In this document: positions 10,563-17,099 of the stretch, one piece after another
Layout of the letters: each line of letters begins with the position of its first letter
Numbering within the stretch: position 1 is the stretch's first letter
From: Bacteroidales bacterium
GTDB lineage: Bacteria; Bacteroidota; Bacteroidia; Bacteroidales; F082
Direction of reading: 5' to 3'
Assembly: GCA_024400195.1 (NCBI GenBank)
Contig: JAKSNC010000023.1
Span: forward strand, 1-34,767
DNA: 34,767 nt
Made by a program: the position numbers and the translations under genes
Notes under the pieces: model-generated
What the model was told of the DNA's origin: nothing
Database searches by the model: none
What the model saw: the letters and a program-made list of their open reading frames with translations, nothing else

Positions 10563-10953
10563 TTATTTGAACTTGATCATGTCAGATAGTTGAAGGAAGT
10601 AGTCGTTGGACCAGATGTCGAGTTCATGGCGCTGCTGTAGTCCAATGTAAGGCAATACATCCTGCTTGACATTGTTGATGTCTGTTGTAGCGAGTTTATT
10701 CCGAAGTTGTTCCATGAATTGTTCGCGGCTGACATCTACACCGCTGAATTCCTTGATTCTTGTTTGTAGATGCTTGAGATCGAGCGGCACATTGTAACGT
10801 ACATACCATTCGAAATCAAACCAGTCGCGGCCCTTGACCCTGCGCTGCCAATTGCGATAAACAAGTGCATGCATCTTGCCCGCATAAAGATCAGGCAAGG
10901 TGAAATGTGCCGCTTCCGTTGTATTCGGCAAGCATTGATTCATATACTGTCAT
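10563..10953 (-). pseudogene. abiEii: AbiEii toxin remnant with internal deletion
   Basis: AbiEii is the nucleotidyltransferase toxin of the type IV AbiE system, normally about 250-300 residues. Here a genuine start (ATG at 10953, overlapping the antitoxin stop as ATGA) encodes MTVYESMLAEYN, a typical AbiEii N-terminus, and then runs into a stop after 20 codons. The adjacent +1 frame holds the family C-terminal domain: LPDLYAGKMHALVYRNW, then RVKGRDWFDFEWYVR. The central catalytic part with the GSxxD nucleotidyltransferase motif is missing. So the gene lost its middle and changed frame at the junction. A 126-residue product from the internal ATG at 10943 is possible but would lack the catalytic core. 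Confidence 0.8.
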
Positions 10954-11579
10954 CGTTCAATCAGTTTTACAAGGTTTGTCAATATCTGGGACTTTCGTCC
11001 CGCCTTGGCACATTCCATGATTATCTTTGTGTCCAGTTCCTTCAGGATGTCCATATCAAGCCTCATGTCTTCTTCAAGATAAGTGGAAAGCGCAGTGAGA
11101 GACCGCTGAGGCACAAATCTGTCGTGCTGTATTGTGTCGCAAAGTGCCTTCTCACGGCTTGCCATGAGAAAACTTACGCCGTTTTCTTCAACGGTTTCAA
11201 CGCCTATCGGAAAATAATTGTCTGGAACCTGCATGTAGGAAAATTCGCCTATGGGCGTTTTGAATGAGCGTGAATGCTTCGTGGTAACGCAGGTCATCCG
11301 GAACACCTGCTCAGGAATCATTCCATAGTACCTTAAAGCCCATTGGATTGAGACATACGATGGCCCGTAAATGTGGTTCGCACATAGACGGGTATCAGTG
11401 TCCTTTCCGGTAAGCTCCTTACTGACTATGTAAAGATTGCGCTTCAGACGAATCAGTTCACCCTGTTTCTCCAACGTCTGGATCTTCTTGTCTGGAGATG
11501 CCAGATCAGGAAAGCAGGACTTGATGTCTGATGACGAGACGGGGATACCCGCAAACTGTATCAGTGGATTCTTAAACAT
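10950..11579 (-). CDS. abiEi: AbiEi family antitoxin
   Basis: A 209-residue protein with an N-terminal winged-helix part (SSSDIKSCFPDLASPDKKIQ, then RLKRNLYIV) and the AbiEi C-terminal domain (GPSYVSIQWALRYYGMIPE, FLMASREKALCD). In AbiE systems the antitoxin represses its own operon and neutralises the AbiEii nucleotidyltransferase toxin. The open reading frame is complete although the neighbouring toxin gene is gutted, so this is now an orphan antitoxin. Its promoter contains a 10-bp inverted repeat that could be its operator. Confidence 0.88.
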   Translation of the reverse strand: MFKNPLIQFAGIPVSSSDIKSCFPDLASPDKKIQTLEKQGELIRLKRNLYIVSKELTGKDTDTRLCANHIYGPSYVSIQWALRYYGMIPEQVFRMTCVTTKHSRSFKTPIGEFSYMQVPDNYFPIGVETVEENGVSFLMASREKALCDTIQHDRFVPQRSLTALSTYLEEDMRLDMDILKELDTKIIMECAKAGRKSQILTNLVKLIER

Positions 11580-11742: not shown

Positions 11743-12645
11743 TTACATTCCTATAAGTTCCTTGAACATACGGACTACGCGGTTGCCCATTTCCGGTGTG
11801 CAACTCTTTTCGTCCATGTCGAAGCAATGGTACGGCATGCACATTTCCGCCACGCATGCGGATTCCAGTTGTTCGAACGTTCTGATAGAATTCCGTTTCT
11901 CCTTACGTAGTTTCACTATCTGATCATACTGGTCAAGCTCACGCTCAGCCTTGTCAAGCAGTTTCTCCAAAATGGATTCCATGTCAGGTTCCGCCTCGGC
12001 ATAGATTTTCCTTGCTATGTCAAGCGACTGTCTGTTCAACGAGGCGATGAGGGCATCATTGAGCTCACCGACCAACTTTTTGACTTTTGCACATAATCTT
12101 GACGTCCTTGTGCGCAAAGCTCCCGGATTGATGTCGAGGATATTCGCTACGTCTCTGTCATCCAAATCGTCATCAGGCCATGAATAGAATCCCATGAAGT
12201 GCTTGTAGGCGCTCCGGAAGAACAGGTAACGGTCTTCGCTTGATTCATGCTGATCGAACCATGCAATGGCGAATCCGACATGCATCAACGTGATGTCAAG
12301 TTGTCTGCCACTATCCGCAGACGCAAGCTGCCTGCGGTATTCGGCCAAAGCGTCCTGCATCTCTGTGAGAATCCTCTTCTCTTCTAACAGGAAGCGTCTG
12401 AATGTCTGGCGCAGCCACGCCGGAGTTGCCTTCTCGTCTTTTATTTGCTGGAGATAGTAGCCCTTGACATCATCAGTGACATACTTGGGCTTTGCCTCAT
12501 ACAGATAAAGGTAGAAGTCCGTCAGATAGTCGTCGAATGTCTTCACCGCCGACAGTTCGGAGTCGCTGAAGAAGACCTGCCGGTAGGTGTTCTCCAGCAG
12601 GTCTCGGTGTGTTACCATCAGCAGATTATATATCTTTTGCTTCAT
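11743..12645 (-). CDS. Sigma-70/ECF-like RNA polymerase sigma factor
   Basis: A 300-residue protein. The first half has a region-2-like helical segment (SAVKTFDDYLTDFYLYLYE). Near residues 160-195 is a region-4-like helix-turn-helix (DDRDVANILDINPGALRTRTSRL, with the usual acidic lead-in and basic recognition helix). A roughly 100-residue charged, helical C-terminal extension follows; it is not part of ordinary ECF factors and may sense or bind a partner. Its ATG overlaps the stop of the upstream VWA gene (ATGA), so the two are coupled. Both transcription units at 12642-15299 share an unusual promoter that this factor could recognise. Domain identity is fairly clear, function inferred. Confidence 0.7.
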   Translation of the reverse strand: MKQKIYNLLMVTHRDLLENTYRQVFFSDSELSAVKTFDDYLTDFYLYLYEAKPKYVTDDVKGYYLQQIKDEKATPAWLRQTFRRFLLEEKRILTEMQDALAEYRRQLASADSGRQLDITLMHVGFAIAWFDQHESSEDRYLFFRSAYKHFMGFYSWPDDDLDDRDVANILDINPGALRTRTSRLCAKVKKLVGELNDALIASLNRQSLDIARKIYAEAEPDMESILEKLLDKAERELDQYDQIVKLRKEKRNSIRTFEQLESACVAEMCMPYHCFDMDEKSCTPEMGNRVVRMFKELIGM

Positions 12646-13340
12646 GATTTTTTGTCTTTTTTGCCGATATTATCGTCAGGATCATCAAAATAGTTGCTGT
12701 TGCAGGCCATTGCAATTCTCGCTTCGCGTGCCATGTCGGAAGTTTCCATCTCGCAGCACATGGCATTCGCTTCGAAATATCTTTCACGGCTTCTGCGTTC
12801 CTTCTCAAACATTGCCTTGGTGCCTTCGTCGTCCTGGACAAAGTTCATGGCATTGGTGATATTGATGGTCATGGCCACACTGACTGCGTCTTGGTTTGCT
12901 CCGATGTAGGTGAACATCCAGCCTTTCTTCTTCAGTTCGTCAATGATTGTGGCAATGGCTTTGCCGCGATATTCCTTGCTGCTGTTCTCCTCACCGTCGG
13001 TGATGATGGTCACTATCACGCTGTCATCGTCAGTCACCGCTTTCCGGATGCTGCTTATGCCGAAGCCGATGGCATCATACAGAGGAGTGCCGCCACAAGG
13101 ATTGTACTCTTCCGGCCTGAGGTCGTTGACTTACTTGATGGAGACCTTGTCACGGAGAAGTCTGATGTTTCCTGTCTCGAAAGGAACGATGCTCACCAAC
13201 TGCTCCTGCTCGGGGAACTTGTCCTGCGCCATGCGAATTGTCTGCAATGTCTCGTTAAGACCGTTAAGAGCCTGACGCTCAATGCAACTCATGCTGCCAC
13301 TCTCATCTAAAATGATCAGATTGAATACTTTTGTTTTCAT
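12642..13340 (-). pseudogene. VWA-domain protein gene interrupted by one in-frame TAA
   Basis: Read through, the frame encodes a 232-codon von Willebrand factor A protein. MIDAS motif 1 is LDESGSM near residue 11, the MIDAS threonine is in CGGTPLYDAIG, and the third acidic site is ITDGEENSS. A TAA at 13131-13133 (codon 70) splits it; the frame is identical on both sides and protein similarity continues directly. A single base change (for example CAA to TAA) explains it. I chose the ATG at 13340 because the leader is conserved with that of the unit at 15233. It is coupled to the sigma factor downstream. Recent nonsense mutation, sequencing error or readthrough are all possible. Confidence 0.8.
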
Positions 13341-13406
13341 ACGAATAATGTTTTGCGTTTGACTTGTTTCGATAATAGGTAGGAAAGAAATGGCGGTTGT
13401 TACATC
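13341..13406 (-). promoter_or_regulatory. Conserved non-canonical promoter/leader, copy A (VWA-sigma unit)
   Basis: On the minus strand: GATGTAACAACC (13406-13395), 12 variable bases, then CTACCTATTATCGAAACAAG (13382-13363), then 22 bases to the ATG. It aligns without gaps to copy B at 15234-15299, with 55 of 66 bases identical. Seven of the 11 differences fall in the 12-base spacer. It has no TAnnTTTG element. The pattern of two fixed blocks around a free spacer is that of a promoter read by an alternative sigma factor. Confidence 0.65.
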
Positions 13407-13477
13407 AAAGGATAAAATATTTTTTGTTACGAAAAACATTTTCTTGGGAATCAACTCATTTTATATGATGTCTGTTA

Positions 13478-13900
13478 TCATATCTTCCGGCAGTGGCTCC
13501 GTAAAATGTTGTAGAACGTTTCAGGCAGATATATGTTGGAAACATGTGTGGCCTCATCGAATAATGGTGCGATTTCTTCGTCTCTGAAGCCGGCTATGCC
13601 GCAGCCGATTCTGGTGACAAGGAATTTCAGTTCCGGATTTGCCTGTGCGAACCTGATGAATTCATCGACGTAAGGCTTGATGGTTTCAACTCCTCCATGC
13701 ATGGTCGGAATAGCATAGGACCGGCCTGTCAGTCCAACGCCGACACCCCATTCTGCGCCGAATTTCATGTTTGCAACCCATGCCGCACCGCCGCCATGCA
13801 TGCCTGCCAGATTGCTTCCGAATACAAAAATTTCATTTTCTTCAAGCATCTCAATCCTGTCTGCCGAGATGTTGGGGTTTTCAGTCCTGTTTTTGCTCAT
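13478..13900 (-). CDS. Macro-domain-like protein (A1S_2505 type)
   Basis: A 140-residue protein. IFVFGSNLAGMHGGGAAWVA resembles the ADP-ribose-binding loop of macro-type folds. GLTGRSYAIPT, FLVTRIGCGIAGF and the closing ...YLPETFYNIL are hallmarks of the phage-associated A1S_2505 family, which I take to be macro-like. It starts inside the end of the 450-residue upstream gene (20-base overlap), so the two are one transcription unit. An ADP-ribose-related ligand is likely from the family; binding or hydrolysis cannot be decided here. Confidence 0.65.
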   Translation of the reverse strand: MSKNRTENPNISADRIEMLEENEIFVFGSNLAGMHGGGAAWVANMKFGAEWGVGVGLTGRSYAIPTMHGGVETIKPYVDEFIRFAQANPELKFLVTRIGCGIAGFRDEEIAPLFDEATHVSNIYLPETFYNILRSHCRKI

Positions 13901-15233
13901 GATTCTTCAATATATTTATAAGTTTATCATATCCGTTATCATTCTTTATGTTGCCCCGCGTGATGTGTTGAGACATTCCCTTATGTCCTTTGGTGATGAG
14001 TCGGCCATTGGCCTCAAGCAGCTCCCACAGTTCTTCGCCTAAGGTGTCCTTCCAGAGTTCTTCTGAACGTAATATAAGGAAAGTCTTGTCTGTCTTGGTG
14101 GCCAGATACTTGATCAGCAGTTTTGTGAATACCATCGAAGGCAGGTGCCTGATTTCGGCTGAATCCTTGAATTTGACCGAGTGGTAGCCGATGAGCTGGA
14201 AAAAGGCGATGTCTTCGTAGATAGGGTGGCAATTTTGGTCGGATGGAATGCCGTATGCATCCATGGCAAGCTTGGCAAAGGCTTTCTCCCAATAGTGGTC
14301 TCCCTGTTCTCTGGAACAATCTGTGTGGTCATATATGCCGTAACCGTCCAAAGTCAGAGCTTTTCTCATCAGATGAAGCAGTTGTTCTTTCTCGCCAGCC
14401 CTCATTTCAAGGCATCTGTCCTTGTTCACCTTTTCAACGTAACCCGGATTCAGAGTGAGCATGACAACCTTTGCCCTGAGCAGATTGCCTGAAAAAGGCA
14501 TCGGAGGCACTTCTGTCCTGTATTGGTACTTAGGCTCATTCTTTTCGTTGAATGCATGGAGAATAGAAGCATCGCCCGGGTATATGCGTTCGTCTTCCTT
14601 CTTGTCGGACCATACGGTGTAACCGAACATCTTGTCGGTAAGCAGTTTCCATCCGTTTTTCAGTCTGATACTGCTTTCATCCACATCAATGTTGCGAAGT
14701 GTTTCCTTCGAAGTGGAAATATACTTGAAGAATTCGCGTTTCGCATTGGGAACATCCTTGAATCGCGCTGCTATCTCATTGTAGTCATAGTGGACGTTAT
14801 CGAAATGGCATTCGACCATATTTGAGTTAATGTTATAATCATAGACAGGCTGCTCCCAGTAACGATAAAGGATTTCTTCTATCAGCAATAGGAACAGTGC
14901 TGAAAAACTCATTTTATCAGGAAGGATAATAGTTGCCAGATTATGTTTGTCGCCCGTACGAAGGATATCAATGTAGCTTGCAATACTCATTTTTGCAGTG
15001 TCTTCATAATCTCCATAAGCAGGATGTTCCATGTGCTGCTTAATGTCTTCGATGAAAATGGGCAAAAGGTCTGCGCCACGCTTCAACCGATAAGCTATTT
15101 CGGCAATCTTGGTGTTATCATCTGCATTATGAAACTCAGATGCACAACTGTCAATGTATGTGCGTGCCGAACGGGGCAGACTCAAATCTTCTGTATTTCT
15201 TAATCTAACCATGTCGAAATGATTTGTTTTCAT
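13881..15233 (-). CDS. Unrecognised 450-residue protein of the sigma/VWA/macro locus
   Basis: I do not recognise this family with certainty. The N-terminal half (about 1-220) is acidic and helical with no motif I can name. The C-terminal half starts with PFSGNLLRAKVVMLTLNPGY and ends with ITKGHKGMSQHITRGN. The LNPG loop early in an alpha/beta domain and the late H...GN segment recall the uracil-DNA-glycosylase-like fold, but only weakly. No signal peptide or membrane segment. I start it at the ATG at 15233 rather than 15242, because the leader matches that of the VWA gene exactly up to ATGAAAACAAA. First gene of the unit with the macro-like protein. Confidence 0.75.
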   Translation of the reverse strand: MKTNHFDMVRLRNTEDLSLPRSARTYIDSCASEFHNADDNTKIAEIAYRLKRGADLLPIFIEDIKQHMEHPAYGDYEDTAKMSIASYIDILRTGDKHNLATIILPDKMSFSALFLLLIEEILYRYWEQPVYDYNINSNMVECHFDNVHYDYNEIAARFKDVPNAKREFFKYISTSKETLRNIDVDESSIRLKNGWKLLTDKMFGYTVWSDKKEDERIYPGDASILHAFNEKNEPKYQYRTEVPPMPFSGNLLRAKVVMLTLNPGYVEKVNKDRCLEMRAGEKEQLLHLMRKALTLDGYGIYDHTDCSREQGDHYWEKAFAKLAMDAYGIPSDQNCHPIYEDIAFFQLIGYHSVKFKDSAEIRHLPSMVFTKLLIKYLATKTDKTFLILRSEELWKDTLGEELWELLEANGRLITKGHKGMSQHITRGNIKNDNGYDKLINILKNHEQKQD

Positions 15234-15299
15234 ATGAATCATGTTTTACGTTTAACTTGTTTCGATAATAGGTAGCTCAAAAACTGAGGTTGTTACATC
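15234..15299 (-). promoter_or_regulatory. Conserved non-canonical promoter/leader, copy B (unknown-macro unit)
   Basis: Minus strand: GATGTAACAACC (15299-15288), a 12-base spacer, CTACCTATTATCGAAACAAG (15275-15256), then 22 bases to ATG. Spacing to the start codon equals that of copy A at 13341-13406. The similarity continues for the first few codons (ATGAAAACAAA). Confidence 0.65.
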
Positions 15300-15319: not shown

Positions 15320-16012
15320 TTAAAACTCCAGTTGGAAGCCCTTCTTCTTGAAGAGCTCGTAGTTCTCCTTGTTGAAGGAGTAGAGTAGGGCATCCCGCTT
15401 TGCAGTCGGCCTGACTGTCTCATCAAGCTGGTTCAGTAGCTCGTAATGCATCATCTTCTTTGCAAAGTTGCGGCGGTCGAATTTGACACCCAAGATGGAC
15501 TCGTATAGTATCTGAAGATCCCTCATGGTGAACTTTTCAGGGAGAAGTTCAAATCCTATCGGCTCGAAGTGGATCCTCTCTCTGAGTTTCCTCATTGCAT
15601 CGCGAAGAATCTTGTCGTGGTCAAAGGCAAGCTGCGGAACCTCGTCGATAGGGAACCACTGGGCTTTTGCCGCATCATCGCCTCCTTTTACCTCCTGTAT
15701 GCGCACGAGCGCGTAATGGGCAATGGTGATCACTCTCTCCCTCGGATCGCGGCCCGGGTCCGAATAGGTGTTGAACTGCTCGATATAGGCATTCTTAAGA
15801 CCTGTCTCTTCTTTCAGCTCACGTAAAGCTCCTTCTTTGGCAGTCTCATCCATATTCAGGAATCCACCCGGAAATGCCCATTTCCCTTTGAATGGCTCAA
15901 TGCCTCTTTCGATTAGGAGCACCTGTAATTCGCTACCGTCGAAACCGAATATCACACAGTCTGTAGTGACAGCCGGATGTGGATATTTGTAGCAGTATTT
16001 GTTATTTTCCAT
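15320..16012 (-). CDS. NrtR-like transcriptional regulator (Nudix plus winged helix)
   Basis: A 230-residue protein with an N-terminal Nudix domain and a C-terminal winged-helix domain (FTMRDLQILYESILG, DRRNFAKKMM). The Nudix box GFLNMDETAKEGALRELKEETGL keeps all residues of Gx5Ex7REUxEExGU. Many NrtR regulators lose hydrolase activity, so an intact box leaves hydrolysis possible. NrtR proteins sense ADP-ribose or NAD metabolites; related Bacteroidota regulators such as AraR sense sugars, so the effector is not certain. The start is the ATG at 16012, downstream of a good promoter and a palindromic operator. Confidence 0.85.
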   Translation of the reverse strand: MENNKYCYKYPHPAVTTDCVIFGFDGSELQVLLIERGIEPFKGKWAFPGGFLNMDETAKEGALRELKEETGLKNAYIEQFNTYSDPGRDPRERVITIAHYALVRIQEVKGGDDAAKAQWFPIDEVPQLAFDHDKILRDAMRKLRERIHFEPIGFELLPEKFTMRDLQILYESILGVKFDRRNFAKKMMHYELLNQLDETVRPTAKRDALLYSFNKENYELFKKKGFQLEF

Positions 16013-16023
16013 TTTTTTGATTT

Positions 16024-16071
16024 GTGTAAAATTTACACGGCAAAGATATGACAAAATATTTAATCCTCCAA
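16024..16071 (-). promoter_or_regulatory. nrtR-like gene promoter with palindromic operator
   Basis: Minus-strand TTG (16071-16069), 20 bp, TATCTTTG (16048-16041) is a textbook Bacteroidota promoter. Between it and the ATG lies the 15-bp palindrome GTGTAAAATTTACAC (16024-16038), at the expected transcription start. This is a natural site for autorepression by the Nudix-winged-helix protein. Confidence 0.65.
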
Positions 16072-16178: not shown

Positions 16179-17099
16179 ATGAAAAAAATATTCTTCATCC
16201 TTGCAGCCCTCTGCTGCATGACGGTGGCGAAGGCACAGACACAGCCGAACAACGAAATCTGGTACACATCCTCGGACAACAAGGTGGTAACGCCTTCCAA
16301 CGATAATTTTAACGTCAGCATCGTGAGCAACGATTACAACGACGGCAAGGGCGTAATCAAATTCAGCGGCGAACTGACAAGTATAGGTGAATTTGCATTC
16401 AACGCCAAAACCACTTTGGCTTCAGTAACCATTCCTGCTTTGGTGACAAGCATTGGAAATTCTGCCTTCGGCAATTGCAGTGGCTTGACGACATTGACCT
16501 TCGCGGAAGGTTCGCAGTTGTAAACCATGGGAGAAGGTGCATTCTACCTCACGGGCATCAAAGGAGAACTGACGCATCCAGCTTCGCTGAAAAACATTGG
16601 ACTTCTTGCCTTCGCCGGTTGCCCACTGACCAAGGTCTATATGAGCTCGGAGAATCTGTCCGGTATCTCGAACAAAATTTTTATTGAAAGTGCCGTGATT
16701 ATTGTTCCCTCAGCATTGTATGAGGCGTACAAGAATCATTTTAGCGGCAACAACAAGGTCGAAGTTCCTTTGAATGAATGGAAGGAATACGCGATAGCAA
16801 AAATCGATGCTGCCATGCAGACCGTAAACACACTTTCGGACACGGACAGAAACACTATTGCAACCGGCATCAGCACAATAGAAAATGCAACAACTTTCGA
16901 CGGAACATTAGAAGCTTATTATGCGGCTTTGGCACTTATCGACCAGCAGAAAGCATTTGAGGACAGAGTGAGAAGTGTGCTTGAAGAATGGGGTACCAAG
17001 CAGCCTAGTATTGCGATTGAGATTGAAGGCGAGGATGAAAAGACCATTCAGCTTTACAAGATAAAGAAAGTGAAATTCATCAAGGTAGATGAAGAATAA
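16179..17099 (+). pseudogene. BspA-like LRR surface protein gene with one in-frame TAA
   Basis: A Bacteroidota secreted protein with a signal peptide (MKKIFFILAALCCMTVAKAQ), the segment NEIWYTSSDNKVV shared by the whole family here, and LRR_5 (BspA-type) repeats (LTSIGEFAFN, VTSIGNSAFGNCSGLTTLTF). A TAA at 16521-16523 (codon 115) falls inside an LRR unit. The same frame resumes at once with GEGAFYLTGI and runs to a family-type tail, KTIQLYKIKKVKF. Read through it would be 306 residues. One base change explains the stop. A short secreted fragment could still be made. Confidence 0.8.

What the first reader, a model, noticed from the sequence alone, without database searches (positions are those of the whole stretch)
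11743..15299. Sigma factor locus with two copies of its own candidate promoter
Two transcription units (VWA plus sigma; unknown protein plus macro-like) are each preceded by the same 66-bp leader: GATGTAACAACC, exactly 12 free bases, CTACCTATTATCGAAACAAG, and 22 bases to ATG. 55 of 66 positions agree, and 7 of the 11 differences lie in the 12-base spacer. The blocks lack the TAnnTTTG element found ahead of many other genes here. A sigma-70/ECF-like factor with a long C-terminal extension is encoded in the same locus and coupled to the VWA gene. I infer a self-contained, autoregulated system of sigma, VWA sensor or scaffold, macro-like protein and an unknown protein.
Basis: partly seen in the sequence, partly recalled or inferred. 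Interest (0 to 1): 0.78.

Follow-up and report, generated by a model that had tools for sequence, protein, structure and literature searches.

The report
Hidden sigma factor with private promoters
A gut-type bacterium carries a little-recognised gene-switch protein whose likely DNA on-switch sits in front of its own genes and of a second gene pair, and the same protein and on-switch occur together in related bacteria, several of them named from horse samples.

Summary
In detail: two 66-bp leaders, 55/66 identical, 7 of 11 differences in the 12-base spacer; no third copy by these patterns in the 1.84-Mb, 89.67%-complete genome.

The core inference holds up by comparison. The 300-aa protein looks like a cryptic ECF-type sigma factor: no Pfam or NCBIfam model reaches its cut-off, but its predicted fold matches sigma2 and sigma4, modestly. 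Relatives lie near VWA genes in 13 other genomes, and in 13 of 13 TG[T/C]AAC-N16-CTAC precedes VWA; 0 of 26 VWA loci without the sigma gene have it. A distant sigma subfamily has TGTAACAT-N14-GTACTW: the 6 of 173 genomes with close copies of that sigma are exactly the 6 with four or more sites, one always close before the sigma gene.

The "unknown" protein has a UDG-like domain; "macro-like" is A1S_2505 family; an NrtR/AraR-family regulator gene adjoins.

Best reading: an autoregulated, ECF41-like sigma driving a private regulon, perhaps for ADP-ribose or base repair. Signal and VWA role are unknown; the VWA gene has an in-frame stop here. There are no transcription data.

The parts
13341..13406 (-). 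Leader 1: predicted sigma-dependent promoter of the VWA-sigma operon. TGTAACAACC 13395-13404, 12-base spacer 13383-13394, CTACCTATTAT 13372-13382, then leader to the ATG at 13340
15234..15299 (-). Leader 2: second copy, before the UDG-like and A1S_2505 genes. TGTAACAACC 15288-15297, spacer 15276-15287, CTACCTATTAT 15265-15275
11743..12645 (-). Cryptic ECF-type sigma factor, 300 aa: sigma2-like about 1-100, sigma4-like about 118-196, C-terminal extension about 200-300
12642..13340 (-). VWA-domain gene, 232 codons read with the stop as X; in-frame TAA after codon 69 in this assembly; open in the relatives
   Evidence: homology to VWA genes
13478..13900 (-). A1S_2505-family ('macro-like') protein, 140 aa
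   Evidence: NCBIfam NF049995 E 2.4e-43
13881..15233 (-). 450-aa protein; C-terminal about 184-448 with a UDG-superfamily-like fold and invariant NPG (residues 262-264)
   Evidence: weak Brig1 profile match E 0.049
15320..16012 (-). Nudix + winged-helix regulator of the NrtR/AraR family
   Evidence: Pfam NUDIX 4.9e-23, NrtR_WHD 1.4e-21 and AraR_C 1.2e-12, all above cut-off; NCBIfam NF050029 (ADPR-responsive repressor) E 5.3e-44, below its cut-off
16024..16038 (.). GTGTAAATTTTACAC palindrome before nrtR, the likely operator of that regulator; differs from the leaders

Best explanation
The 300-aa protein is an ECF-type sigma factor with a C-terminal extension. RNA polymerase carrying it reads a dedicated promoter, TGTAAC(AACC)-N16-CTAC(CTATTAT). 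One copy drives the VWA gene and the sigma gene itself (positive autoregulation), a second drives the UDG-like and A1S_2505 genes. No anti-sigma gene was recognised; activity is probably gated by the C-terminal extension, perhaps with the VWA protein (inferred). The outputs, the neighbouring NrtR/AraR-family gene and the ADP-ribosylglycohydrolase genes seen in two relatives point to removal or repair of ADP-ribose or base modifications (inferred, weaker). Shown by comparison: motif, exact spacing, pairing with the sigma gene, second copy. Not shown: transcription start, binding, signal, function.
For: 16 aligned leaders from 14 genomes: TG[T/C]AAC and CTAC kept and exactly 16 apart in 16 of 16; the 12 spacer positions vary (0.24-1.33 bits). 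The long motif (<=2 mismatches) occurs once in each of 10 relatives' genomes and twice in the own one, reversed controls 0. Among 393 order genomes 37 have the VWA and 4 the sigma; all 4 have sigma and VWA adjacent or one gene apart. In L095 (convergent) and L096 (sigma upstream) the motif stays with VWA though it cannot transcribe sigma. Second subfamily: the 6 of 173 genomes with >=59%-identical sigma are exactly the 6 with >=4 TGTAACAT-N14-GTACTW sites (8, 5, 5, 4, 4, 6; the other 167 have 0-2), one site beginning 82-124 bases before the sigma match in 6 of 6. Fold: sigma2 and sigma4. ECF41 has a similar promoter, TGTCACA-n16-CGTC (passages); ours is one base shorter.
Confidence: 0.78

Rival explanations
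1. The leaders are operators of the neighbouring NrtR/AraR-family repressor, not sigma-specific promoters.
For: nrtR lies directly upstream of leader 2 here and upstream of the leader in L042 and L044; 6 of 29 VWA loci outside the own genome have nrtR near, all six without sigma.
Against: nrtR has its own palindrome GTGTAAWTTTTACAC in the window, L044, L066 and L069, with one base different in L042; L061 and L063 do not show it. The leaders do not contain it. Two genomes with the motif (G562, completeness not told, and G193, 99% complete) have no relative of this NrtR at E<=1e-10. VWA loci with nrtR but no sigma lack the motif.
Confidence: 0.06
2. The leaders are ordinary housekeeping (TTTG/TAnnTTTG) promoters or conserved 5' untranslated elements, alike because one was duplicated recently.
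For: Identity of the two leaders extends into the untranslated part and first codons; TAAATTTG overlaps the block in 5 of 16 leaders, a sixth has one farther upstream; 3 of 14 second-subfamily sites overlap TATATTTG.
Against: Both window leaders and 8 further ones lack TAnnTTTG in the stretch read. Across the most distant loci only TGYAAC-N16-CTAC and a few nearby positions survive, not the untranslated part. The motif tracks the sigma gene.
Confidence: 0.1
3. The leaders are sigma-dependent but read by another ECF sigma factor of the cell; the 300-aa protein is another kind of regulator.
Against: Motif and gene family co-occur in two subfamilies with subfamily-specific sequence; sub-threshold matches to the C-terminal part of sigma models in several members (TIGR02983, TIGR02937).
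Confidence: 0.06

Closest known systems
ECF41 sigma factors (PMC3426412; passages read)
   Same: ECF with a C-terminal extension, no obvious anti-sigma gene, a single target transcript in the organisms tested, highly conserved dedicated promoter with an AC-containing -35 (TGTCACA-n16-CGTC).
   Different: Extension gives no Pfam match above cut-off; -10 is CTAC and the spacing one base shorter; partner is a VWA gene, not a carboxymuconolactone decarboxylase, oxidoreductase or epimerase; a second target operon.
ARG-centred systems with Nudix-HTH (NrtR-like) regulator, vWA and Macro genes, proposed to counter viral ADP-ribosylation (PMC9503650; section 3.8 read in full, passages elsewhere)
   Same: Nudix-HTH regulator, vWA gene, a macro-like gene; ADP-ribosylglycohydrolase in two relatives (L044, L148).
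   Different: 'sigma' does not occur in the paper's main text; it names lineages including actinobacteria, planctomycetes and proteobacteria and gives a repressor as the switch. None of eight window proteins scanned is an ADP-ribosylglycohydrolase; the rest of the genome was not searched for one.
CorE-type (ECF238) sigma factors with cysteine-rich C-terminal domain (PMC8999054; passages)
   Same: Regulatory C-terminal extension; the tail has 1-5 cysteines in the 13 members with an extension.
   Different: CxC in the tail in only 5 of 13, and one member has a single cysteine there: no conserved metal site.
UDG superfamily / Brig1
   Same: UDG-like fold and NPG motif of the 450-aa protein.
   Different: Match to the Brig1 model far below cut-off (13.1 against 230 bits); N-terminal part of about 180 residues unknown.

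Membership tests
ECF (group IV) sigma factors | sigma2 and sigma4 domains without sigma3 | tested here: met
ECF (group IV) sigma factors | recognisable by curated sigma-70 family models | tested here: inconclusive
   No Pfam sigma model in any of 11 members; NCBIfam matches only below cut-off. Being caught by a model is not itself a defining trait.
ECF (group IV) sigma factors | AAC-type -35 and short -10 box about 16-17 apart, autoregulation | tested here: met
   TGTAAC-N16-CTAC or -GTAC before the sigma or VWA-sigma genes; sequence only; not autoregulatory in L095 and L096.
ECF (group IV) sigma factors | directs transcription with core polymerase | not testable with these tools
   needs in vitro transcription
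ECF41 | TGTCACA-n16-CGTC promoter; SnoaL-like extension (the latter recalled) | tested here: not met
   Promoter is TGTAAC-N16-CTAC; no Pfam match above cut-off in the extension.
ECF238/CorE | cysteine-rich C-terminal domain | tested here: not met
   1-5 cysteines, no conserved set.
ARG-centred ADP-ribosylation countering systems | ADP-ribosylglycohydrolase core gene | tested here: inconclusive
   Present in L044 and L148; none of eight window proteins matches.
ARG-centred ADP-ribosylation countering systems | Nudix-HTH regulator, vWA and macro-type genes | tested here: inconclusive
   Nudix-HTH and vWA present; the macro fold of A1S_2505 was not tested, and the regulator could be AraR-like.
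UDG superfamily | UDG alpha/beta fold with NPG-type motif | tested here: met
NrtR operator | leaders contain the palindrome found before nrtR | tested here: not met
   palindrome lies before nrtR, not in the leaders.

The most novel reading that the evidence does not exclude
A previously unrecognised family of ECF sigma factors in Bacteroidales, invisible to current domain libraries, whose subfamilies read paired promoter dialects (CTAC or GTAC at -10). One subfamily has been wired to vWA, UDG-like, A1S_2505 and ADP-ribosylglycohydrolase genes to form a sigma-switched, possibly antiviral, response to ADP-ribosylation or base damage, spread horizontally among animal-gut bacteria.
Probability: 0.4. 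Interest if true: 0.85.

Novelty: new variant of a known kind. Interest (0 to 1): 0.7.

Why it matters
Two sigma subfamilies come with predicted promoters specific enough to read off their regulons, and one would link an ADP-ribose-type gene set to a dedicated sigma factor, a control not mentioned in the one survey of such systems that I read in part (PMC9503650). The family is missed by Pfam and NCBIfam, so its members are likely annotated as hypothetical (inferred). If confirmed, the sigma-promoter pairs could serve as orthogonal switches in gut Bacteroidales.

Tried and rejected
NrtR operator: rejected (own palindrome; motif in two genomes without a relative of this NrtR). CorE-like metal-sensing tail: cysteines not conserved. 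Detached C-terminal extension in L096 (144-aa neighbour): no similarity to the sigma profile. Phage or plasmid origin: no match to the sigma protein in plasmids, phages or viral contigs (the last reaches close relatives only). Loose motif TGTAAC-N16-STACYW: not enriched over control in 17 genomes. Sites in G564 and G569 before a housekeeping-type sigma gene carry TACTTTTG and were not counted; one-mismatch sites in G566:C5 and G381:C30 were not examined. Sigma beyond the order: of 395 genomes drawn from the phylum, only the own one at E<=1e-8. Rfam and tRNA scans of the window: nothing. Solved relatives by sequence: none credible for sigma, A1S_2505 or the 450-aa protein. One search gave 40 VWA matches and 30 loci; the 10 matches without a locus were not examined. 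The distant relative in L033 (G045) dropped out of the neighbourhood tables because the profile search missed it; G045 came back.

Papers: searches for a Bacteroidetes ECF promoter TGTAAC and for at least four of ADP-ribosylglycohydrolase, sigma factor, NrtR, Bacteroidetes and anti-phage listed nothing; the library lacks most subscription papers. One flavobacterial start-site study (PMC9723704, passages) reports an ECF-type motif with a CGT box, not this one.
Full report
Observation. On the minus strand the window reads nrtR (16012-15320), leader 2 (15299-15234), a 450-aa gene (15233-13881), an A1S_2505-family gene (13900-13478), leader 1 (13406-13341), a VWA gene (13340-12642) and the 300-aa sigma-like gene (12645-11743). 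The leaders agree at 55 of 66 positions, 7 of 11 differences being in the 12-base spacer; upstream of them blocks of ten agree at 0-5 positions, and the identity ends 10 bases inside the genes. In the genome (1,839,057 bases, 54 contigs, 89.67% complete) the pattern occurs only at these two places, control 0.

Relatives. A genome-contig scan gave 10 loci, all Bacteroidales-type MAGs; some titles name horses, and the RUG names point to rumen (recalled). In 10 of 10 a VWA gene lies just upstream of sigma and TGTAACAACC-N12-CTAC lies before the VWA gene. In 393 order genomes 37 have the VWA (40 matches, E<=1e-10) and 4 the sigma (E<=1e-6): own, G462, G381 and G193; G462 has a second, weak match elsewhere. 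All four have sigma and VWA adjacent or one gene apart and TG[T/C]AAC-N16-CTAC before VWA (for the three; for the window). In G381 (L095) the genes converge, and in G193 (L096) sigma lies upstream with a 144-aa gene between; the motif stays with VWA, so VWA is a target in its own right. In a sample of 395 phylum genomes only the own one has the sigma at E<=1e-8. In the own family it is in 1 of 173 at high identity; 15 further genomes have relatives at 22-34% identity.

The promoter. Sixteen leaders aligned on the motif (two own, L042-L051, L053, L095, L096 and the second G569 site) keep TG[T/C]AAC and CTAC in 16 of 16, always 16 apart (they were aligned on this pattern); AACC is kept in 14 of 16; the 12 spacer positions carry 0.24-1.33 bits, being T-rich in the middle, and an A/T-rich stretch lies about ten bases upstream. 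Base-shuffled upstream regions have it in 22 of 58,000. One more match, in L061, lies inside nrtR about 430 bases from its VWA start. With at most 2 mismatches the long pattern is found once in each of the 10 relatives' genomes and twice in the own one, controls 0. A shorter pattern with 1 mismatch allowed gave 16 sites in 14 genomes, 13 of them exact (the known leaders) and 3 with a mismatch, against 10 control hits; one of the 3 is the second G569 site.

A second subfamily as a test. The distant relatives L029-L031 showed TGTAAC-N16-GTAC before their own sigma gene. I then searched 173 family genomes for TGTAACAT-N14-GTACTW and for that sigma. The six genomes with >=59%-identical sigma (G045, G085, G086, G087, G088, G092) have 8, 5, 5, 4, 4 and 6 sites. 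Of the other 167, G068 and G107 have two, five have one (the own genome's lies inside an open reading frame), 160 none. A further 24 genomes with 32-44% identical sigma (G068 and G107 among them) do not have three or more, so the dialect goes with the close subfamily only. In 6 of 6 a site begins 82-124 bases before the start of the sigma match. The chance of 6 of 6 against 0 of 167 is 2.9e-11. The pattern was drawn from G087, G088 and G092; for the three held-out genomes alone it is 1.2e-6. Relatedness of the six is not corrected for. In 3 of 14 of these sites read, an ordinary TATATTTG box overlaps the -10. The loose joint pattern was not enriched in 17 genomes: only the subfamily-specific forms are informative.

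Mechanism. Most likely the sigma factor is held inactive until a signal acts on its C-terminal extension, as proposed for ECF41 (PMC3426412, passages); then it transcribes its own operon and the UDG-like/A1S_2505 operon. The NrtR/AraR-family protein may add a second layer through its own palindrome, which follows a TATCTTTG box before nrtR. The VWA role is open: in this assembly its gene has an in-frame TAA (a real lesion or a consensus error; intact copies exist), so it may be dispensable or the system may be decaying here. Sigma copies 78-83% identical in MAGs labelled Bacteroidaceae, Rikenellaceae and Egerieousia, and nrtR copies 93-95% identical between the window genome, G561 and G563, suggest horizontal transfer.

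Verdict. The pattern is real, the sigma-promoter link is well supported by comparison but untested at the bench, and the function is a reasoned guess.

Noticed in passing
window 12642-13340: The VWA gene carries an in-frame TAA after codon 69 in this assembly; relatives are open.
   Followed up: partly
window 16179-17099: A gene with leucine-rich-repeat-like sequence also appears split by an in-frame TAA near 16521.
   Followed up: no
window 10563-11579: AbiEi antitoxin gene (PADLOC E 1.2e-70) followed by an AbiEii gene matching only the C-terminal part of its family model (residues 152-269 of 270).
   Followed up: no
L029, L030, L031, L151-L161: A distant ECF subfamily in the same genus has several TGTAACAT-N14-GTACTW sites per genome; similar downstream genes (a glycosidase-like protein, a TonB-like protein, a small protein a few genes before dnaA; names are my reading) recur in two or three genomes.
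   Followed up: partly
L148: In G569 a second promoter-like copy precedes a 129-aa protein, a leucine-rich-repeat-like protein, a VWA-A1S_2505 fusion and an ADP-ribosylglycohydrolase.
   Followed up: partly
window 16024-16038; L042, L044, L066, L069: GTGTAAWTTTTACAC palindromes before nrtR (one base different in L042), a likely operator of this NrtR clade.
   Followed up: partly
L095, L096: Sigma is convergent with VWA (L095), or lacks the extension and is followed by an unrelated 144-aa overlapping gene (L096): possible anti-sigma or detached regulator.
   Followed up: partly
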